Assembly (NCBI GenBank): GCA_910573755.1
Contig: CAJTBO010000017.1
Location: 40,266 to 104,265, forward strand
DNA: 64,000 bases
Direction of reading: 5' to 3'
Origin: Lachnospiraceae bacterium
GTDB taxonomy: Bacteria > Bacillota > Clostridia > Lachnospirales > Lachnospiraceae
Part shown: positions 5,872 to 57,614 of the stretch, in pieces
Position numbering within the stretch: position 1 is the stretch's first letter
Layout: every line of letters begins with the position of its first letter
Notes under the pieces: generated by a model
The model's database searches: none
What the model saw: only the letters and a program-made list of their open reading frames with translations
What the model was told of the DNA's origin: nothing
Translations under genes and position numbers: made by a program

Positions 5872-6867
5872 ATGCATATGGCGGATGCGTTGGTAGTGCC
5901 TGCTGTGGCGGGCACTATGTATGCTGCTTCCACGGCGGCGGCAGCTTATTCGATCAGGAAGGTACGGCTGGAGAATGAACCGAAAAAAATTCCGGCGATG
6001 GGAGTCATGGGTGCTTTTGTATTTGCGGCGCAGATGATCAACTTTACGATTCCGGGAACAGGCTCGTCGGGGCATTTGTGCGGCGGTATGCTGCTGACAG
6101 CCATGCTGGGGCCCTTTGCGGGCTTTCTGACAATGACGGGAATATTGCTGATCCAGTGTCTGGTCTTTGCGGACGGCGGCCTTTTGGCGCTGGGGTGCAA
6201 TATCTGGAATATGGCATTTTACGGCTGTTTTGTCGGCGGGCTTCTGATCTGGAAACCCTTTATGAAACGGAATATGACAAAAAGACGGATCACGGCGGTT
6301 TCCGTTGCAGCCTGTGTGATAACGCTGCAGATGGGGGCATTTTCCGTGACGTTGGAAACCCTAGCTTCCGGGATCACGGAGCTGCCGTTCTCTGTTTTTA
6401 TCGGCGCCATGCAGCCGATCCATCTGGCGATCGGACTGGTGGAAGGGCTGATCACGGCGGCAGTGCTTTTGTTTGTTTATGAAGCGAGGCCCGGGATGCT
6501 GTGGGCGGAGACTGCTGCGAAAGAGGAAGGAAGGTTCAGTTTCCGCAGGACGCTTGTTATATTGGCGGCGGCAGCCGCGTTTATCGGGGGCGTGGTATCC
6601 CTGTTTGCGTCCGCTCTGCCGGATGGACTGGAGTGGTCAATGGAACGGACAGCCGGTACGTCGGAACTGGCGGCATCCGGCGGTGCCTATGAACTGGCGG
6701 AGAGTATTCAGGGCACAACGGCTATTTTGCCGGATTATGCGTTTTCTTTCAGTGATTCCGCAGCGGGGACGACCGTTTCGGGGCTTGTCGGAGGTGTGCT
6801 GGTGATCGCGCTTTGTATAGCGGTATGTTATGGCATGAAATTTTTCAGAAAAGGGAAAAACGGATAA
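5872..6867 (+). CDS. nikMN: Nickel ECF transporter substrate-binding fusion NikMN (LarMN)
   Basis: The S component of an energy-coupling-factor transporter for Ni(II). The N-terminus is MHMADAL: family structures show the free amino group and the second-position His bind the metal, which fixes the start at ATG 5872. About seven membrane segments of CbiM/NikM type are followed by a C-terminal extension with the PDGLEW motif, the NikN/PDGLE domain that replaces CbiN in nickel systems. That motif, with larB, larC and larE downstream, argues for nickel rather than cobalt. Stop and the nikQ start overlap (TAATG). Confidence 0.9.
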   Translation: MHMADALVVPAVAGTMYAASTAAAAYSIRKVRLENEPKKIPAMGVMGAFVFAAQMINFTIPGTGSSGHLCGGMLLTAMLGPFAGFLTMTGILLIQCLVFADGGLLALGCNIWNMAFYGCFVGGLLIWKPFMKRNMTKRRITAVSVAACVITLQMGAFSVTLETLASGITELPFSVFIGAMQPIHLAIGLVEGLITAAVLLFVYEARPGMLWAETAAKEEGRFSFRRTLVILAAAAAFIGGVVSLFASALPDGLEWSMERTAGTSELAASGGAYELAESIQGTTAILPDYAFSFSDSAAGTTVSGLVGGVLVIALCIAVCYGMKFFRKGKNG

Positions 6868-7667
6868 TGGCGAAGCTTGGGAGAGCGATCCGTGAAATAC
6901 ATAGTCTGGAGAATCTGGCAGAGCGGAATACGTTTTTTAACAGGATACATCCGACGGCAAAGGTGCTTGTGACGATCTGGTATCTGATCCTGGTGATGAG
7001 TTTCGGAAAGTATGATGTGACCGGACTTTTCGGGATGTGCCTTTATCCGCTGATCCTGATGATATCAGGGGATATTTCCATAGGACAGGCAGTGCGGCGT
7101 CTGAAACCGGTGCTGCTTATGGTGTTTCTGATCGGGGCGGCGAATCCGTTTTTTGACAGGACGCCTGTTCTGGAAGCGGGAGGGATTACCGTCACGGCAG
7201 GGATGCTTTCCATGTTGACATTGTTTTGTAAGACAGGGTTTGCGGTTTTTGCATCCTATGTTCTGATTGCCACAACAACGATGGAGCAGATCTGTTATGC
7301 CCTGCGCAGACTCCATATGCCGCAGATACTGGTGACGGTGCTGCTGCTGATATACCGCTATCTGGTGCTGATGCTGAAAGAGGCGGACCGGATCACACAG
7401 GCTTATATGCTGCGCGCGCCCGGTGAAAAAGGAGTGAAAAAGAGCGCCTGGGGGCCTTTGGCGGGGCAGATGCTGCTGCGCAGTATGGACAGGGCGCAGA
7501 GAGTGTATGAGAGTATGACGATGAGAGGGTTTCGGGGAGAGTTTTTTCTGCGGGGGAGTTTTATCCCGCTGCGGCAGAGCGTTTTGTACGGGGTCATCTG
7601 GTATCTGGTGCTGGCGGTATTTCGGCTGGTGCCGGTGTTTGAACTGGTCGGGCGGATTTTTATATGA
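6867..7667 (+). CDS. nikQ: ECF transporter T component (NikQ/CbiQ)
   Basis: The transmembrane coupling subunit that links the NikO ATPase to NikMN. ATG 6867 overlaps the nikMN stop by one base; a longer frame to 6813 would run back inside nikMN. The 266-aa protein has about five to six membrane helices and two cytoplasmic coupling motifs near the C-terminus: YMLRAPGEKG and ESMTMRGFRGEF (the Ala-Arg-Gly-type motifs that contact the ATPase). It is translationally coupled to nikMN and followed directly by nikO. Confidence 0.9.
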   Translation: MAKLGRAIREIHSLENLAERNTFFNRIHPTAKVLVTIWYLILVMSFGKYDVTGLFGMCLYPLILMISGDISIGQAVRRLKPVLLMVFLIGAANPFFDRTPVLEAGGITVTAGMLSMLTLFCKTGFAVFASYVLIATTTMEQICYALRRLHMPQILVTVLLLIYRYLVLMLKEADRITQAYMLRAPGEKGVKKSAWGPLAGQMLLRSMDRAQRVYESMTMRGFRGEFFLRGSFIPLRQSVLYGVIWYLVLAVFRLVPVFELVGRIFI

Positions 7668-25972: not shown

Positions 25973-26221
25973 GTGAACAGGCTTGGTTTTATCATTTTAT
26001 CGATTCTATTCAAAGAAGAGGCTATCAGTAAGTTATCATCTATGGCAGTTCATGAGATAGCCTCTCTGGAGAATCTTGATTTGAAAGAAAATACAATTTA
26101 CAAAAAATTAAAAGATTTTGAAAGATCCGGTTACATATGCCGCGGACTGAAAGAGGGAAGGGCAGATACATATTTTATCACACCGGAAGGCATCGAATGT
26201 CTGGAAAGGGAAAGATCATGA
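25973..26221 (+). CDS. tubR: TubR-like winged-helix centromere-binding protein
   Basis: 82 aa predicted to be a winged-helix DNA-binding protein: LSILFKEEAISKLSSMAVHE, then ENTIYKKLKDFERSGYIC (recognition helix) and the wing GRADTYFITPEGIECL. It starts at GTG 25973 after AAGGTGGTG and overlaps the tubZ start (ATGA). Its place between a tandem iteron array and a TubZ GTPase is the tubC-tubR-tubZ order. It would coat the iterons and link the DNA to TubZ filaments. Confidence 0.75.
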   Translation: MNRLGFIILSILFKEEAISKLSSMAVHEIASLENLDLKENTIYKKLKDFERSGYICRGLKEGRADTYFITPEGIECLERERS

Positions 26222-27246
26222 AAAATAAAATTGCTTTTGTTGCTGTCGGACAGGCCGGTGGCAATATCGGAAAACTTTTAGAGGAAAAGGGATTTTCTGT
26301 ACTGTACATGAACACATCTAAAGAGGATCTTAACACGCTGGAGCATGTAAAATTCAAATATCATATTACTGGCGGCGAAGGCTGCAATAAAGACCGTCAT
26401 AAGGCAAAGCAGCTTATTGTCGATGACTTTGATAATATTGTCTCAGAAATCGAATCAAAGCTTAAAGCGGACATAATCTTTATTATTTTTGCAAGTGGCG
26501 GTGGGACCGGATCAGGTGCGGGACCGATGCTGACAGATCTCCTGCTGGATGAAGGCAAGACGATCGGCACGATAACAATTCTTCCTGCTCCGGAGGAAAG
26601 CGTAAAATCCCATATCAATGCATATGAGTGCTTTATAGAACTGACCGAGATAGGAGGAACCGGTGCCTGTTTTATTCTCGATAATGCGCGAGGAGAAAAG
26701 ATAAACCTGAATTCTCGGTTTGTGGATACTTTCACGGTTTTTCTTGAAATACCAGATAGACACAGAAGCATTAAAGGGAATGTTGACAAAGCAGAAATAA
26801 TGGAAACATTGAAGGCACATGGGATGGCTGTTGTGATGAGGGAAAAGTCTGATAGCAGTGAAGAAATGATAGCCTCTGTAAAAGAAAATATTTTTGCTCC
26901 GCTGGAAGCGGACAGGACAGTCAAGTATATTACTGCGTCTATGGCTGGAAATGTAAAGATGGCTGATCTGGAAAAGGCAGTCGGGATGCCGATTGATAAT
27001 TTTCAGACATACAACGACGAAGAGACTATCTGCTGCATGTCGGGGCTTACGTATCCGCAGACACGATTTGATGATATCTACAAAAAGGTATCTGAAAATA
27101 AAGACCTGATCAAGAAAAATCTGGCTGCCACGCATGAGAGTGGCATGAAAAGGGATATAAATTTTCTTGAGGAAATGAAACCTGAAAGAAAACAGGATAT
27201 CCAGAGGCCGAAATCAAGGCGGGATATCATGAGCAAATATTTATAG
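26218..27246 (+). CDS. tubZ: TubZ-like tubulin/FtsZ superfamily GTPase
   Basis: A cytomotive GTPase whose treadmilling filaments move TubR-bound DNA. From ATG 26218 it is 342 aa, near the short clostridial phage TubZ. Nucleotide-binding GQAGGN (residues 11-16), tubulin signature GGGTGSG (94-100) and a T7-like loop NVDKAE (188-193) with the acidic residues needed for GTP hydrolysis. The end is a basic tail (PERKQDIQRPKSRRDIMSKYL), as expected for TubR binding. It is not FtsZ: the FtsZ C-terminal FtsA/ZipA peptide is absent and it sits in a prophage with tubR. Coupled to tubR by ATGA overlap. Confidence 0.88.
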   Translation: MKNKIAFVAVGQAGGNIGKLLEEKGFSVLYMNTSKEDLNTLEHVKFKYHITGGEGCNKDRHKAKQLIVDDFDNIVSEIESKLKADIIFIIFASGGGTGSGAGPMLTDLLLDEGKTIGTITILPAPEESVKSHINAYECFIELTEIGGTGACFILDNARGEKINLNSRFVDTFTVFLEIPDRHRSIKGNVDKAEIMETLKAHGMAVVMREKSDSSEEMIASVKENIFAPLEADRTVKYITASMAGNVKMADLEKAVGMPIDNFQTYNDEETICCMSGLTYPQTRFDDIYKKVSENKDLIKKNLAATHESGMKRDINFLEEMKPERKQDIQRPKSRRDIMSKYL

Positions 27247-31935: not shown

Positions 31936-32508
31936 GTGAATACTGTGGAGCCGATCCGGGATATGGATCTCGTTTGGGATGTGGCGGATTTTTTGAAAGC
32001 CAGGAACCAGAGGGATTATGTCCTTTTTATGTTTGGCATATACACAGGGCTCCGGATTTCTGACATCCTGAAATTGCGAGTTAGAGATGTTCGGGGCAGG
32101 AATCATATATATATCCGGGAAAAAAAGACTGGCAAGGAAAAGCGCTTTCTAATCAATGCAGAGCTAAAGCCTATCATAGAGGACTTTATCAGGGATAAAA
32201 AAGATTTTGAATTTTTATTCAAGTCTCCGGACTATCCGAATAAGGAAATCAGCAGGCAGCAGGCCTACAACATATTAAATGCGGCGGCTGATGCGGTGGG
32301 TATCAAGGACAACATAGGAACGCACACATTACGAAAGACTTTCGGTTATCATATGCACCAACAAGGGGTATCGTTGGCAACGCTCAAAGAGATATTCAAT
32401 CATTCAAGCGAAGCCGTGACAGCCAGATATATAGGCATCAACCAGGATATACAAGACATAAGCATAGACGGGTTGAGCTATCGCAAGGCGGGCAGGGGAA
32501 GGAGATAA
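31936..32508 (+). CDS. Small tyrosine recombinase (catalytic domain only)
   Basis: 190 aa with all catalytic residues: Arg in TGLRISDIL, Lys in the REKKTGKEKRF hairpin, THTLRKTFG (HxxR), NHSS and Tyr in TARYIGI. The arm-binding and most of the core-binding domains are missing, unlike the 331-aa integrase. Such short recombinases are often found just before terS in Firmicutes phages; whether they integrate, resolve dimers or regulate late genes is not settled. AGGAAGGAGGG precedes the start, which is GTG 31936. Confidence 0.85.
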   Translation: MNTVEPIRDMDLVWDVADFLKARNQRDYVLFMFGIYTGLRISDILKLRVRDVRGRNHIYIREKKTGKEKRFLINAELKPIIEDFIRDKKDFEFLFKSPDYPNKEISRQQAYNILNAAADAVGIKDNIGTHTLRKTFGYHMHQQGVSLATLKEIFNHSSEAVTARYIGINQDIQDISIDGLSYRKAGRGRR

Positions 32509-53078: not shown

Positions 53079-54110
53079 TTGACTGGGACAATAATAACAA
53101 AAAAGGGAATACAGTTACTCGTAAAATTGATGGCAACAAAGGGAGAACTTGTATTTAATCGTGTTGGCATCGGAATCGGGCTCCTTCCCACAGGATATGA
53201 TCCGGCAAGCATGATAGATCTTGTTAATTATAAAATGGATGGTGCTATATCAAGGTGTGAAGCAGATTCAGATGTTGCTAAAATAACTATGCAGGTTAGT
53301 TCAATCGGTGTAGAAACAGGATTTACAATGACCGAAATAGGAATTTTTGCCGAAGATCCAGATGTGGGAGAGATCCTGTATTCGTATTTGGACTTGCAGG
53401 AAGATCCACAGTATATCTATGCAGAAGGAGGAGACGCGGAAAAGTACATTGAAATAACGCTTGAAGTAGCAATAGAAGAATCCACTAAGGTTAGCGCTTA
53501 CATAAATCCGGATAGTTTGGTTACAAGACAAGAATTTGAAAAACAGCTTTTAAATTTTAAAGAAGAAATAAAAGGAGGACTGGAAAAGATTGATTTTGAC
53601 GATTCAGGAGAGATAGAAGGAATAGAATCTTTTACAGATTTTATGTCTTCGTTTGTGAAAGGGACAAATATATATCAGTTTTTTTCGAACTTGAAGGCCG
53701 GGCTGAATTACGTCTTGCACGCCGGTCAGCTTGTCAACAGTGGTATGTGTGAAACGCCGGGTATGTTCCCGCTGGACGCCGCTTTTGGGAAAACCTTGCA
53801 GGACCAGATTACTGGGTTATATAGTGAGATAGATTTCAAAACATTATTGGTTGGGCAACAAGTACGCCCTGATAAGCTTAACACATTAATAGATGTCGAT
53901 ATTACTGATTTATATAATAAGCGTATGTCCGGAAAAAAATCTATATATGAAGTTCCTTATATTTCGTACATCGAAAATCCAGTGCAGATGTGTTGGTACT
54001 ACTATATAGGGAGTGGGCGTAAAATATTCAGGTATGCAGTAACCAGAGAATCTGATTTGCATTCAGCAATTAATTTAAATTTGGCTATATTGTATCGCGA
54101 TATTAGCTAA
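53079..54110 (+). CDS. Tail fibre protein (constant N-terminus, switchable C-terminus)
   Basis: 343 aa, start TTG 53079 two bases after gene I. Residues 1-150 are the phage tail-collar fibre domain (GTIITKKGIQLLVKLMATKG; GVETGFTMTEIGIFAEDP) that attaches to the baseplate. A linker ends FPLDAAFGKTLQDQITGLYS. At residues 247-251 (DNA 53817-53830) lies the recombination-site sequence; everything after it (94 residues, here starting IDFKTLLVGQQVRPD) is the currently expressed tip. The tip should bind the host surface; it can be exchanged with three other encoded ends by inversion. Confidence 0.88.
   Translation: MTGTIITKKGIQLLVKLMATKGELVFNRVGIGIGLLPTGYDPASMIDLVNYKMDGAISRCEADSDVAKITMQVSSIGVETGFTMTEIGIFAEDPDVGEILYSYLDLQEDPQYIYAEGGDAEKYIEITLEVAIEESTKVSAYINPDSLVTRQEFEKQLLNFKEEIKGGLEKIDFDDSGEIEGIESFTDFMSSFVKGTNIYQFFSNLKAGLNYVLHAGQLVNSGMCETPGMFPLDAAFGKTLQDQITGLYSEIDFKTLLVGQQVRPDKLNTLIDVDITDLYNKRMSGKKSIYEVPYISYIENPVQMCWYYYIGSGRKIFRYAVTRESDLHSAINLNLAILYRDIS
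53817..53830 (+). repeat. Shufflon site A (in the expressed fibre gene)
   Basis: TTATATAGTGAGAT, read in frame as L-Y-S-E-I. Shares the core TATAGTGAKAT with sites B, C and D, always in the same codon phase. Confidence 0.75.
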
Positions 54111-54274
54111 TCACATATACTATATGCCCATAATACCATCCGCTTTGTGTAATATTAGGAAAAAGTTAAATATCTCCACGCTGTCCAATTTGTAGTACCA
54201 GTTATTTGACTGTTTGTCGCCGAATTGCAATCTTGTCGCTCCAAAAACCTATAGCGATTTGTGTAGCGTAGTTT
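54111..54274 (-). pseudogene. Decayed fibre C-terminus fragment(s)
   Basis: Reverse-strand pieces in different frames look like fibre ends: NYATQIAIGFWSDKIAIRRQ, then TGTTNWTAWRYLTFS with a stop, then SGWYYGHIVYVIS with a stop at 54111. Frame changes and internal stops show it is not one working cassette. It lies tail-to-tail with the expressed fibre gene. Confidence 0.5.
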
Positions 54275-54559
54275 TTATGTCATAGCAACCCAGTTTATGG
54301 AATATGGGCAGTCACTAACATATTCCGTTTTCAAATAAACAACAAATTTATTTTTGGTTTTTTTTTGGTCGCATATAGAGAGGTGTGTTATACCGTAACC
54401 TTCAAAATTTTTATTTGGTATCCCTAAACTAATTACAATAACTGGCATTGTGTTAAATGGATGTGGATATGGTATTTCTATTTCGTATTCGCCAGGTGCA
54501 TGTGAAATAAATACATATTGACCAAACTGTAGTTTTTTATATCCGATATCACTATATAA
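54275..54559 (-). other. Silent fibre C-terminal cassette B
   Basis: Starting at site B the reverse frame reads PLYSDIGYKKLQFGQYVF and continues for about 95 residues to a stop at 54275, including PFNTMPVIVISLGIPN and the end YSINWVAMT, a common fibre tip pattern. There is no own ribosome binding site. Inversion between sites A and B would fuse it in frame to the fibre N-terminus. Confidence 0.75.
54546..54559 (-). repeat. Shufflon site B (inverted)
   Basis: Reverse complement of TTATATAGTGATAT: differs from site A at one position. Codon phase L-Y-S-D-I. Confidence 0.7.
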
Positions 54560-54706
54560 CGGAGTATTTGGTGTCGAAAAAAGATATTGTATGCGGTGTG
54601 GCGGATATGCTATAATCCCGGTATGGGAAAACCAGAGAGCCAAAGGCGGCTTACCCTCCATCTCGGAGGGGCTACCCTCCAGACGAAAGAAAGGAGGGCG
54701 ATGTCA

Positions 54707-54799
54707 ATGTATGTTACATATCCGGATCTGATCCAGTTTTGTATCTTCATTGTCGCCCTTGTTGGTCTGATCTATCAGATTTTCAGGGGAAGAAAATAG
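54707..54799 (+). CDS. Small hydrophobic type I toxin-like peptide
   Basis: A 30-aa peptide, MYVTYPDLIQFCIFIVALVG then LIYQIFRGRK: one transmembrane helix and a basic end, the form of holin-like/TxpA-type toxins. ATG 54707 is eight bases after AAGGAGGG; ATG 54701 is too close. It is folded into a self-paired mRNA and has an antisense RNA candidate at its 3' side. Its location inside the invertible region is unusual. Confidence 0.65.
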   Translation: MYVTYPDLIQFCIFIVALVGLIYQIFRGRK

Positions 54800-54838
54800 C
54801 CGCCACTACTTCCGATAGTGACGGCTGTTTACAAATAA
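54790..54838 (-). ncRNA. Candidate antisense RNA antitoxin
   Basis: A reverse-strand -10 TATAAT (54850-54845) would start a transcript near 54838 that ends at an 11-bp hairpin (AGCCGTCACTA/TAGTGGCGGCT, 54826-54798) followed by ATTTTCTT. It overlaps the toxin's stop and 3' untranslated region. No good -35 is visible. Confidence 0.35.
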
Positions 54839-54974
54839 CAGTCAATTATACTTGAGGGTAGCCGCTTCTCTGGCTTTCCTTTTTTTAATATAGCATATGG
54901 AGCAGTAAGATTCAAGATTTTTTCTGCATTGAGTGATGATTTGCTCTAAAATAAAGACGGAGGAGGATATCATC

Positions 54975-55994
54975 ATGATAGAAAAAATATTGGAAAAAGT
55001 GCTAGATGCGATGACACCGCATCTGGACGATGAACAAATTGAAAAACTGAATAATGTGCTGTACCTAAACTTTCATGGCATTGAAGTGAAGGAAGAATGC
55101 TATGAACTGAAACCTACTGGATTAAGCGGGAATGCTGCCAAACTGGATCTGTTTGTGAAAAGTAAGCTGGCAGTGAATCGGCAGAGCGGCACCATGAAGC
55201 AGTATGCCAGAGAAATTTGGGCAGCACTGAATTTTATTGGAAAGGATATCAGTGATATCAAAGCGGCAGATGTAAGGTATTATTTCGGATATCTGCGAGA
55301 AATTAAGAAACTGAAAATGTCTACCATTCAGACCAGAATGCATTATCTTAGCAGTTTCTGGGATTTCCTCACAGCGGAAGAACTTACGCAGGGAAATCCT
55401 ATGAAAAAAATAGGGAAGATTAAGGTTGAAAAAATCATAAAAAAACCTTTCAGCGTAAGGGACATGGAAGCCCTGAGAAGTAGCTGCAAAAGAGTAAGAG
55501 ACAGGGCCTTGATTGAATTTCTGTATTCGACTGGAGTTAGGATATCAGAGGCTGTTGCTCTTGATGTAGGGGACATAGATATGGCGCATCTGGAAATGGT
55601 AGTGTATGGAAAAGGGAGCAAGGAACGGAAAACATATTTGACCGAGAATGCAAAATTCTATCTGGATAAATACCTGAAGGAAAGATGCTTGCGCGAGCGG
55701 ATTACATATGAAGAATTAAAGAAGAGACCATTATTTGTGAGCAATGATAAGAATCACAGAAGAATAACTGATAACGGAGTGCAAGACATGCTGCGAACGC
55801 TGGGCAGGAGAGCAGGCGTGGAGATGGTTCATCCGCACCGGTTCCGCCGGACGATAGCAACAGATCTGCTCAGCCGGGGGATGCCGATCGAGCAAGTCCG
55901 TGACTTTCTGGGACACGAAAAATTGGACACGACGCTGATTTATTGCACGGTCCAGGCAGAGGAGGTTAAGGCATCTCATAGAAAGTGCGCTTAA
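54975..55994 (+). CDS. Shufflon tyrosine recombinase
   Basis: 339 aa, XerC/D-like. N-terminal SAM-like domain (FVKSKLAVNRQSGTMKQYAR...FIGKDISDIKAADVRYYFGY) and catalytic domain with Arg in STGVRISEAVAL, Lys in YGKGSKERKTY, HPHRFRRTIAT (HxxR), LGHEKLDTT and nucleophile Tyr in TTLIYCTV. Start ATG 54975 seven bases after GGAGGAGGAT. It is flanked on both sides by fibre cassettes with inverted sites, the place of Rci-like shufflon recombinases. It is the third tyrosine recombinase of this prophage. Confidence 0.88.
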   Translation: MIEKILEKVLDAMTPHLDDEQIEKLNNVLYLNFHGIEVKEECYELKPTGLSGNAAKLDLFVKSKLAVNRQSGTMKQYAREIWAALNFIGKDISDIKAADVRYYFGYLREIKKLKMSTIQTRMHYLSSFWDFLTAEELTQGNPMKKIGKIKVEKIIKKPFSVRDMEALRSSCKRVRDRALIEFLYSTGVRISEAVALDVGDIDMAHLEMVVYGKGSKERKTYLTENAKFYLDKYLKERCLRERITYEELKKRPLFVSNDKNHRRITDNGVQDMLRTLGRRAGVEMVHPHRFRRTIATDLLSRGMPIEQVRDFLGHEKLDTTLIYCTVQAEEVKASHRKCA

Positions 55995-56104
55995 TATAGC
56001 GGGTAGTATAGCCAGAGGCAGGCGGAAACGGCTGTCTTATTAAGTTTACACATTTTTAAAGCAATTATCAAAAAATACTGAAAAGAGGAGGTCTGAGAAA
56101 AAGT

Positions 56105-56398
56105 CCTGAATATAGTGAGATTGCAGAACCTAAAATTGGATTCAGTTCATTGCCTGGAATGACATTGTGGGATTCAAATATACAAAAATGTATTTTATTT
56201 TTTCCGGTTCGGTATTTCAACATGGAAAAATATAACATTGTTCCCGTTCGGGCATATATTTCTGGAATTACATCTTCAATTGATGAAAACCCGAGATTAG
56301 CGCTTGGTGGTCATTATATAGTAGCGTACACAAATGTAATAGATCCTGAATATGAAGGGCACTATGCGATTTTGCAAATTAATATTTCCCATAAGTAG
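56105..56398 (+). other. Silent fibre C-terminal cassette C
   Basis: From site C the forward frame reads PEYSEIAEPKIGFSSLPG and runs to a stop at 56398 (ending YAILQINISHK). There is no fibre N-terminus or proper start upstream; 55995-56104 holds no gene. Because site C has the same orientation as A, cassette C would be expressed only after two successive inversions. Confidence 0.75.
56108..56121 (+). repeat. Shufflon site C
   Basis: GAATATAGTGAGAT, identical over 14 bases to site D and sharing ATATAGTGAGAT with site A. Codon phase E-Y-S-E-I. Confidence 0.75.
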
Positions 56399-56432
56399 CA
56401 AGGCTATTATCATTTTATTTGTATCGCGATAT

Positions 56433-56783
56433 TTAGCCAACCACATAAAAAACATCAGCAAAAATCCAATTAAGTCCCTCTTCTGTAGCTATGATATTTA
56501 TAGATCCATCCTGCTTAATTTTCAAGATGCCAGTTCCATTTTTCGCAGTGCCAGACGCAAAAGCGGCTACTGCAGTTATTTCCACGCTTGGGATAAAAGC
56601 GGGATCTGTTATTTTAGCATAAATATTTACGCCTAATTGATACGGACATGTCCCGTGTAAATGAGCATGTATAATAGGACCATACTTGACAAACGTGCAA
56701 TTAGTGTATTCCAAACCAGATACTAAGTATGTGAGGATGCCATCATCTTTTGTTCTTACAACAGGAGTTATCTCACTATATTC
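56433..56783 (-). other. Silent fibre C-terminal cassette D
   Basis: From site D the reverse frame reads PEYSEITPVVRTKDDGIL and ends NWIFADVFYVVG at 56433, about 117 residues, with VEITAVAAFASGTAKNGTG typical of receptor-binding tips. No own start with ribosome binding site. Its 3' end faces that of cassette C; the bases TATCGCGATA near both 3' ends (54093-54102 and 56421-56430) are the same in cassette A. Confidence 0.75.
56770..56783 (-). repeat. Shufflon site D (inverted)
   Basis: Reverse complement of GAATATAGTGAGAT. Outermost right site; inversion with A would flip about 2.95 kb including the recombinase gene. Confidence 0.75.
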
Positions 56784-56814
56784 TGGGCAATTTTTAATAA
56801 AATCGAAAAAAATG

Positions 56815-56864: not shown

Positions 56865-57614
56865 ATGGAAAAAATTAAAATCGGAAAAAGGAAAGAACTG
56901 TATGAGATTGAAAGTATCATGCAGCATGATCATGGCATCCTGAAAATCATCTTTCCAGAAGGAATGAAGATTCCTGAGAAGTGGAACGGTGATATCTCCA
57001 TCTGTACGGCCGGAGGAATCCCGTACGCAGTCAAATCAGGATATGAAACTGTATACCTGCAGGAAGGGCAGACCGTATACCTGTCCAACGATGGCAGCGT
57101 ATATGTCCCGCCCGCGCCGCCAGAGCCGGTCCCGGAGCCGGAACCGTATGTGCCAACGATAGAAGAGGTTAAGGCAGCAAAGAAAGCGGAAATATCGCCA
57201 ATATGTGAGCAGGTTATCTATTCGGGATGTGATGTGACTCTATCAGATGGAGAGTTACATCATTTTTCGTTGACAATAAGGGATCAGGTCAACCTTTTCG
57301 GCAAGCAGGCCCAGCTGGCGGCAGGGGTAGAGAAGGTGGAGTATCATGCGGACGGCCATCCGTGCCAGTATTACAGCGTAGAGGACATGGAAAATATCAT
57401 TGGATCTGCGATGTGGTATGTGTCGTACCATACTACATATTGTAACGCACTCAATATGTGGATTGCGGGGTGCCATACGGTGGAGGAAGTACAGGAGATC
57501 TATTATGGTGCAGATGTACCAGAGGAGTACAAATCAAAGGTCTTGCAGGCATATCTTATACAGATAGCCGAGATGGCGGGAGGAAAAAAAGAAGATGAAG
57601 AAAGTGATATGTAA
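56865..57614 (+). CDS. Fibre-associated DUF4376-like phage protein
   Basis: 249 aa, RBS AAGGAGG. A beta-rich N-terminus (GKRKELYEIESIMQHDHGIL), a Pro/Glu linker (PPAPPEPVPEPEP) and a helical C-terminal domain (VKAAKKAEISPICEQVIYSG...LFGKQAQLAAG) that resembles DUF4376, often coded right after tail fibres. It may be a fibre assembly protein or a second virion tip protein. Being outside the invertible region, it stays constant. Confidence 0.65.
   Translation: MEKIKIGKRKELYEIESIMQHDHGILKIIFPEGMKIPEKWNGDISICTAGGIPYAVKSGYETVYLQEGQTVYLSNDGSVYVPPAPPEPVPEPEPYVPTIEEVKAAKKAEISPICEQVIYSGCDVTLSDGELHHFSLTIRDQVNLFGKQAQLAAGVEKVEYHADGHPCQYYSVEDMENIIGSAMWYVSYHTTYCNALNMWIAGCHTVEEVQEIYYGADVPEEYKSKVLQAYLIQIAEMAGGKKEDEESDM

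What the first reader, a model, noticed from the sequence alone, without database searches (positions are those of the whole stretch)
53817..56783. Shufflon-like switch of the tail fibre tip with its own recombinase
Four short sites share TATAGTGA(G/T)AT: A (53817, forward, inside the fibre gene), B (54546, reverse), C (56108, forward) and D (56770, reverse). All are read in the same codon phase (Y-S-E/D-I), and each is followed by a different fibre-like C-terminus ending in a stop. Only A is joined to a fibre N-terminus; B, C and D have no start. A tyrosine recombinase lies between B and C. Inversions A-B or A-D would put cassettes B or D on the fibre; C needs two steps. This predicts four alternative receptor-binding tips in one prophage. 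The R64 shufflon and phage G-loop/Min systems are the known precedents; a tyrosine recombinase with cassettes of this layout in a lambda-head/P2-tail prophage is the part that may be undescribed.
Basis: partly seen in the sequence, partly recalled or inferred. Interest (0 to 1): 0.93.

Follow-up and report, generated by a model that had tools for sequence, protein, structure and literature searches.

The report
Four-tip fibre shufflon with central recombinase
A prophage of a Lachnospiraceae bacterium carries a tail-fibre gene with one tip, three spare tips, and a recombinase that likely flips DNA at four short sites to change the tip; public sequences already hold the same fibre stem joined to one of the spare tips.

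Summary
In detail: four TATAGTGA(G/T)AT sites, alternating in orientation, flank a XerC/D-like tyrosine recombinase, and each opens a 93-115 codon tip in one codon phase; 0.003 exact sites are expected per 3 kb. A database protein joins the window's fibre stem (247/247 residues) to the window's silent tip C (95/95); two more join the same stem to other tips. Two prophages on one contig of another genome differ by an inversion of the C-D segment, with ends at the sites; in a further relative the block is turned round. The layout A> <B rec C> <D was catalogued in 17 loci, the window included. So this is a tail-fibre shufflon. It is not a new kind: Rin of bifidobacterial prophages (PMC6109161, 2018) already is a phage receptor-binding-protein shufflon with a tyrosine invertase. 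New, as far as my searches go, are the recombinase-centred alternating layout, its spread in Lachnospiraceae, and a topology in which every deletion between direct sites removes the recombinase. Flipping in this strain, biochemistry and host range are untested.

The parts
53079..53819 (+). constant part (247 codons) of the tail-fibre gene; N-terminal tail-collar fibre domain
   Evidence: PF12571 E 5e-4 (20.5 bits, cut-off 23), phrog_30004 E 2.8e-64, phrog_7037 tail fibre E 2.8e-38; AlphaFold: residues 1-140 pLDDT 78-92; the joint lies at the end of a low-confidence helix 234-249
53812..53830 (+). site A, 19-bp conserved unit, core ATAGTGA
53820..54110 (+). tip cassette A (96 codons), the one joined to the stem here
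   Evidence: same tip on other stems in P0005 (100%) and P0009 (97%)
54275..54556 (-). tip cassette B (93 codons), silent here
   Evidence: a 71% homologue on the identical stem in P0002; 98% on other stems in P0024 and P0123; homologue joined to the stem in L006
54546..54564 (-). site B
54600..54920 (.). type I toxin-antitoxin-like block in the central segment, toxin ORF 54701-54799 (+)
   Evidence: PF16935 Hol_Tox E 2.6e-5 (24.4 bits, cut-off 23.3); block also between site B and the recombinase in L035, L044, L045; the antitoxin was not looked for
54975..55994 (+). tyrosine recombinase, 339 aa, XerC/D-like, no arm-binding domain found; predicted invertase
   Evidence: PF00589 E 6.8e-36, PF02899, PF13495; all 11 NCBIfam matches are below their cut-offs; R189, K213, H286, R289, H314 and Y323 invariant in 5 aligned sequences, the window's included (catalytic roles recalled)
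56103..56121 (+). site C
56111..56398 (+). tip cassette C (95 codons), silent here
   Evidence: P0004 carries it, 95/95, on the identical 247-aa stem
56433..56780 (-). tip cassette D (115 codons), silent here
   Evidence: no match in the 396 other family genomes searched nor among 123 proteins
56770..56788 (-). site D
56865..57614 (+). next tail gene (DUF4376-like); marks the fixed flank beyond site D
   Evidence: PF14301 E 1.5e-4 (22.6 bits, cut-off 25), phrog_1348 tail fibre protein E 8.5e-11; DNA match in the same place beyond D in L005/L029 and L030

Best explanation
This is a tail-fibre shufflon: one fibre stem and four tip cassettes meet at four 19-bp sites, and the tyrosine recombinase in the middle likely inverts DNA between oppositely oriented sites so that another tip is joined in frame to the stem. 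Layout: stem-A> a b <B recombinase C> c d <D. Inversion A/B would expose b, A/D would expose d, and a further inversion would expose c; C/D and B/C inversions would rearrange the silent part. Shown directly: the sites, the phase, the open tips, natural proteins that join the same stem to other tips exactly at Y-S-(E/D)-I, and, in relatives, inverted segments with breakpoints at the sites. Inferred: that this recombinase does it, that it is active in this strain, that the tips bind receptors, and that switching changes host range. By enumeration, in all 16 inversion states the sites stay +,-,+,-, so every reaction between direct sites (A/C or B/D) would remove the recombinase and leave a fibre with one two-tip pair.
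For: Exact sites far beyond chance, one phase. P0004 = same stem 247/247 + window tip C 95/95; P0002 and P0003 = same stem 247/247 + two other tips. Of 123 proteins held, 52 had a joint I could place; 9 of the 10 stem clusters (97% identity) with two or more members carry two or more tips. L032/L033, two prophages on one contig: recombinase segment 97.5% same strand, C-D segment 98.8% inverted, ends at the sites. L044 against L045: recombinase block turned round relative to fibre stem and downstream genes, ends at sites. The 4-site layout with in-phase frames passed a strict scan in 12 of 32 recombinase loci; none of 93 shuffles scored as low. Five loci were added by eye, giving 17, all with one phase at the four sites. 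47 distinct sites from 12 loci share 19 positions and little outside. Silent tips match stem-joined tips of other loci (window B to L006 A, 71%). In 397 family genomes the 19-bp pattern occurs twice or more in 4, all recombinase carriers; its reversed control in 1.
Against: No reads or experiment show flipping in this strain. P0004's arrangement could also arise by one A/C deletion, and its contig and source are not visible. The protein database is clustered at 90% identity, so fibres alike in stem and tip are merged and the '9 of 10' is biased upwards. No natural fusion with tip D was found, and tip B on the identical stem is only a 71% allele. Tips have no family or confident fold. The strict count is soft for two loci: L042 reaches 3, not 2, mismatches with its likelier site A, and in L037 C and D are copies of A and B. 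Three of the four multi-site genomes (not G160) supplied sites to the consensus, and two of six carriers (G298, G414) have fewer than two matches. Seven phage records with a more distant recombinase (L098-L104) showed no convincing site set.
Confidence: 0.93

Rival explanations
1. The tips are exchanged by homologous recombination and gene transfer between phages, and the short sites are only conserved linker codons (Y-S-E/D-I) of the fibre stalk.
For: Conserved codons at a joint can be kept by protein function; the same tips sit on different stems, and the last part of the stems is similar between clusters.
Against: The conserved DNA reaches to -8 also at silent cassettes that have no stem; silent cassettes keep alternating orientation around a dedicated recombinase in 17 catalogued loci; the C-D segment and the L044 block are inverted with ends at the sites.
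Confidence: 0.04
2. The system is a shufflon but is now locked in this prophage (decayed relic). This does not exclude the best explanation; it concerns present activity only, so its odds are not to be added to the others.
For: Activity is untested; decayed or partial copies exist in relatives (L028 recombinase broken; L027 pair without a recombinase beside it).
Against: The recombinase frame is intact with its putative catalytic residues invariant, all four tips are open, and stem plus tip C exists elsewhere with 100% identity.
Confidence: 0.15
3. The recombinase is an ordinary integrase or Xer-type resolvase that lies by chance between fibre fragments.
For: Best models are XerA/XerC/XerD and integrase families.
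Against: Below every NCBIfam cut-off; its relatives form a supported clade (20 rows, 100/100) of which 15 have the site set, one of them with three sites before the contig ends; all 4 family genomes with two or more 19-bp sites carry it, though 2 of 6 carriers have fewer.
Confidence: 0.02

Closest known systems
Rin shufflon of Bifidobacterium prophages (PMC6109161; section 8 read in full)
   Same: Phage receptor-binding protein with constant N-terminus and 95-100 residue variable C-termini, short asymmetric repeats (11 bp), predicted XerD-like tyrosine recombinase without arm-binding domain, inversions seen between prophages and in virion DNA.
   Different: In Rin the cassettes lie between the constant gene and a recombinase at the edge and are called tandemly oriented; here the recombinase sits inside, between two tail-to-tail pairs, with alternating sites. 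The repeat (TTCCCTAACCC) differs. How deletion is avoided is left open for Rin; here every direct-site deletion would remove the recombinase.
Rin-like locus of Eggerthella lenta prophages (PMC8778435; passages read)
   Same: Tyrosine recombinase beside small tandem C-terminal cassettes.
   Different: Cassettes downstream of, not around, the recombinase; other phylum.
Min, Gin, Cin fibre inversion systems of p15B, Mu and P1 (as described in PMC6109161)
   Same: Alternative fibre types switched by inversion.
   Different: Serine recombinases; here a tyrosine recombinase.
R64 PilV shufflon with Rci (recalled)
   Same: Several cassettes, short repeated sites, tyrosine recombinase.
   Different: Pilus adhesin of a plasmid, recombinase outside the shufflon.

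Membership tests
Shufflon (multi-site inversion system exchanging C-termini) | One constant N-terminal gene and several further C-terminal cassettes at shared sites, in phase | tested here: met
Shufflon (multi-site inversion system exchanging C-termini) | Different C-termini found on the same N-terminus in nature | tested here: met
   P0001-P0004 share 247/247 residues and have four tips
Shufflon (multi-site inversion system exchanging C-termini) | Segments inverted between sites | tested here: met
   L032/L033 and L044/L045; in relatives, not in this strain
Shufflon (multi-site inversion system exchanging C-termini) | Site-specific recombinase required for inversion | not testable with these tools
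   association only
Rin shufflon (phage, tyrosine invertase) | Tyrosine recombinase with core-binding and catalytic domain but no arm domain | tested here: met
   SAM-like core-binding models plus PF00589 only
Rin shufflon (phage, tyrosine invertase) | Cassettes between constant gene and a recombinase at the edge | tested here: not met
   recombinase lies between sites B and C
Rin shufflon (phage, tyrosine invertase) | rix repeat TTCCCTAACCC | tested here: not met
   the repeats at the cassettes are CTNNNTNAWATAGTGAKWT-like
Rin shufflon (phage, tyrosine invertase) | Recombinase orthologous to Rin | not tested
   Rin sequence not fetched
Min/Gin/Cin serine inversion systems | Serine recombinase | tested here: not met
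   PF00589 tyrosine recombinase
R64-type shufflon | PilV adhesin target | tested here: not met
   target is a phage tail-fibre gene

The most novel reading that the evidence does not exclude
A widespread family of prophage fibre shufflons in Lachnospiraceae in which the recombinase rides inside the switch between two tail-to-tail cassette pairs. Alternating sites keep all 16 states productive and make deletion self-terminating, because every direct-site event ejects the recombinase, and with it the toxin-antitoxin block where one is present. Since unlike prophages share the core ATAGTGA, the same sites also serve as ports through which prophages trade fibre tips.
Probability: 0.5. Interest if true: 0.75.

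Novelty: new variant of a known kind. Interest (0 to 1): 0.62.

Why it matters
It extends tyrosine-recombinase fibre shufflons from actinobacterial prophages to a group of Lachnospiraceae prophages and gives a testable answer to a question left open for Rin: how inversion is kept without destructive deletion. It also offers a visible joint at which gut phages seem to exchange tips, so fibre variation can be read from sequence.

Tried and rejected
DNA comparison with 50,697 phage records found no match. Viral contigs searched with the fibre stem gave no relative. A search of viral contigs for the A-side joint found only a contig already held (L105, the contig of L005). Phage records with a more distant recombinase (L098-L103 from human faeces, 31-46% identity; L104, 33%) had no convincing site set: L099 and L104 gave only weak three-copy repeats. 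A general k-mer detector was too noisy and was replaced by a recombinase-anchored scan with a null. L083 first looked like a different site, but its repeat follows the same core ATAGTGA. Site A of L042 was first set 27 bases too late; the phase is the same, but its mismatch total is then 3. AlphaFold gave no confident tip (pLDDT per ten residues 27-48 for tip A, 42-71 for a B-type tip); the fold search had no match at E 0.001, the best being a tail chain of Haloferax tailed virus 1 at E 0.0037; solved structures gave no match to the B-tip fibres. Rfam: no match. The idea that the toxin-antitoxin block is a dedicated deletion guard was not adopted: of the 17 catalogued loci only the window, L035, L044 and L045 have it between B and the recombinase; it also lies in front of the recombinases of L047 (reversed) and L051, where no site set could be read, and of L096, a recombinase without sites; and related blocks occur without this recombinase in more than ten other genomes. 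Rows dropped: L051, L089 and L102 were too short for the tree; L005, L029, L030, L031, L040, L041, L043, L049 and L050 duplicate other loci; 71 of 123 proteins had no joint that I could place.
Full report
Observation. The four sites are present at the stated places, are the only exact copies in the window, and alternate in orientation: A 53820 (+), B 54556 (-), C 56111 (+), D 56780 (-). A first-order model expects 0.003 exact copies in 3 kb; with one mismatch allowed over 64 kb the five matches are not unusual (10 of 100 shuffles). All are read in one codon phase and open frames of 96, 93, 95 and 115 codons. Between B and C lies a 339-residue tyrosine recombinase; its closest solved relatives by sequence are a XerC-like recombinase, XerD and XerA.

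Setting. The window holds a prophage with gpA-type terminase, lambda-type portal, capsid protein E, tail sheath and FII tube, P2 gpU, baseplate J and gpI, and a glycosyl hydrolase family 25 protein. Its family handle f1 also holds G414, whose contigs of 27,058 and 19,003 bases equal those of Lachnoclostridium sp. An14, a member of Lachnospiraceae.

Natural products. A search with the whole fibre returned 144 proteins, 120 listed; a second, with the tip of the L006 fibre, returned 7, three of them new. P0002, P0003 and P0004 share all 247 stem residues with the window and then diverge exactly at Y-S-(E/D)-I. P0004 continues with 95 of 95 residues of the window's silent cassette C; P0002 with a B-type tip, 71% like window B and identical to the tip of L006; P0003 with a 35-residue tip identical to the L006 B tip. 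Of the 123 proteins, 52 had a joint that I could place. They make 36 stem clusters at 97% identity; 10 have two or more members, and 9 of these 10 carry different tips. The database is clustered at 90% identity, which merges fibres alike in stem and tip, so this fraction is biased; what counts is that near-identical stems (97.9-100%) change only after the joint. The source of P0004 is not shown, so it may come from a near relative or the same species. No protein with tip D was seen among the 123, and of 397 family genomes, the own one included, only the window's has D.

Natural inversions. In G054 (one contig; listed contamination 8), two prophages (L032, L033) share the recombinase segment at 97.5% on the same strand and the C-D segment at 98.8% on opposite strands, while the flank beyond D is collinear at 84%; the inverted match ends at the two sites. 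In L044 the genes that in L045 lie beyond D lie before A, and the fibre stem joins at D: the recombinase block is turned round, with ends at the sites. L093 also has the stem at D. Of the 17 catalogued loci a stem of 77 codons or more is at A in 11, with L084 (82 codons, gene not scanned) as a likely twelfth; in L042 and L082 the part before A is short (about 40-50 codons) and no longer than open starts before some silent tips, so its role is less sure; the stem is at D in 2 and not identified in L037.

Family. A scan anchored on the recombinase asked for four matching 11-mers in the order +,-,+,- with in-phase frames of at least 60 codons. In 12 of 32 loci the total of mismatches was 2 or less, against none of 93 shuffled sequences (two-base blocks; minimum 3, without the frame demand). 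Two of the 12 are softer: L042 has 3 with its likelier site A, and L037 contains a tandem copy, so C and D repeat A and B. Five more loci (L006, L032, L046, L084, L092) were added by inspection; L006 and L032 each have one short tip (35 and 45 codons) and L092 is the weakest. In 17 of 17 the longest frame after each of the four sites has the same phase, and 66 of 68 frames reach 60 codons; the scan had asked for phase and length in those it found. The 47 distinct sites of 12 loci define 19 conserved positions, from -8 to +10, with little conservation beyond. As a wider check the pattern CTNNNTNAWATAGTGAKWT was sought in 397 family genomes: 19 have a match, mostly single and at background level (the reversed control is in 30); 4 have two or more (control 1), and all 4 carry the recombinase. 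Three of the 4 had supplied sites to the pattern; G160 had not. Two of the six carriers have one match or none. In the recombinase tree a 20-row clade (support 100/100) holds the window; 15 of its rows carry the layout (L048 with three sites before the contig ends). Of the other five, L047 could not be judged, L038 and L085 show repeats in other arrangements (tandem in L038), and L039 and L086 no clear set. Three more distant loci (L091-L093, 37-38% identity) have the layout with other site sequences, so the layout is either old or arose twice.

Exchange between prophages. L027 carries a 97% copy of the window's A-B segment (53817-54558) behind another fibre stem and, in the 18 kb read, without a recombinase of this kind. 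Its sites look like hybrids: the left arms resemble those of the other site group, the right halves are the window's (by eye). A B/D deletion, or cassette exchange at the core, would leave this; it is inference. L037 (a MAG contig) shows a tandem copy of recombinase and cassette pair with a period from site to site, which would fit a direct-site event but may be an assembly effect.

Topology. Enumerating inversions gives 16 states, each tip exposed in four; b and d need one step, c two. In every state the sites remain +,-,+,-, and all 32 direct-site deletions lose the recombinase and leave one cassette pair. For Rin the authors ask how deletion is avoided (PMC6109161, section 8 read in full); here deletion would be self-terminating. 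This is a property of the layout, not a measured outcome.

What is known. Rin (PMC6109161) is the precedent for a phage-encoded tyrosine invertase that shuffles receptor-binding protein tips; a Rin-like locus is reported in Eggerthella prophages (PMC8778435, passages). PMC5903667 mentions inversions in prophage regions, particularly tail fibres, of four Proteobacteria species (passages), and PMC2647930 an Rci-like integrase in a Pseudomonas prophage (passages). Eight searches of the open library showed no title or abstract start on such a system in Lachnospiraceae or on a recombinase-centred layout; 'shufflon' with 'Lachnospiraceae' gave no paper. I read from four papers only; others in the lists, among them PMC13418256 and PMC10939037, were seen as listings, one search listed 20 of 32, and subscription papers and preprints are not held. 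Priority is therefore not established.

Verdict. It works like Rin but is not shown to be a member of it. I file it as a new variant of a known kind.

Noticed in passing
window 26137-27246 (+): Gene with a weaker match to phage tubulin PhuZ (phrog_4733, E 1.2e-11; best match phrog_17961, unknown function, E 4e-37), next to a DnaD-like helicase loader.
   Followed up: no
window 31936-32508 (+): A second tyrosine recombinase, 190 aa, phrog_216, near the terminase.
   Followed up: no
window 54600-54920: Type I toxin-antitoxin-like block (PF16935) between site B and the recombinase; also in L035, L044, L045 and, in front of recombinases without a readable site set, L051, L047 (reversed) and L096; related blocks elsewhere in more than ten other genomes.
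   Followed up: partly
L042 and L082 (Lacrimispora celerecrescens and G041): Four-site loci whose stem gene is very short (ORFs of 126 and 147 aa, no PHROG match) and which in L042 stand beside penicillin-binding-protein-like genes rather than a tail module (names of the neighbours by eye).
   Followed up: partly
L037 / L031 (G008:C46): 2592-bp tandem copy of recombinase and cassette pair, period from site to site; the contig ends inside it.
   Followed up: partly
L028 (G001:C113) 6509-7591: Decayed copy of the window's B site, toxin block and recombinase near a contig end.
   Followed up: no
L094 (G134:C7): Recombinase of 36% identity with a repeat CAATAATTTA at three forward and one reverse place, each before an open frame: perhaps another shufflon.
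   Followed up: no
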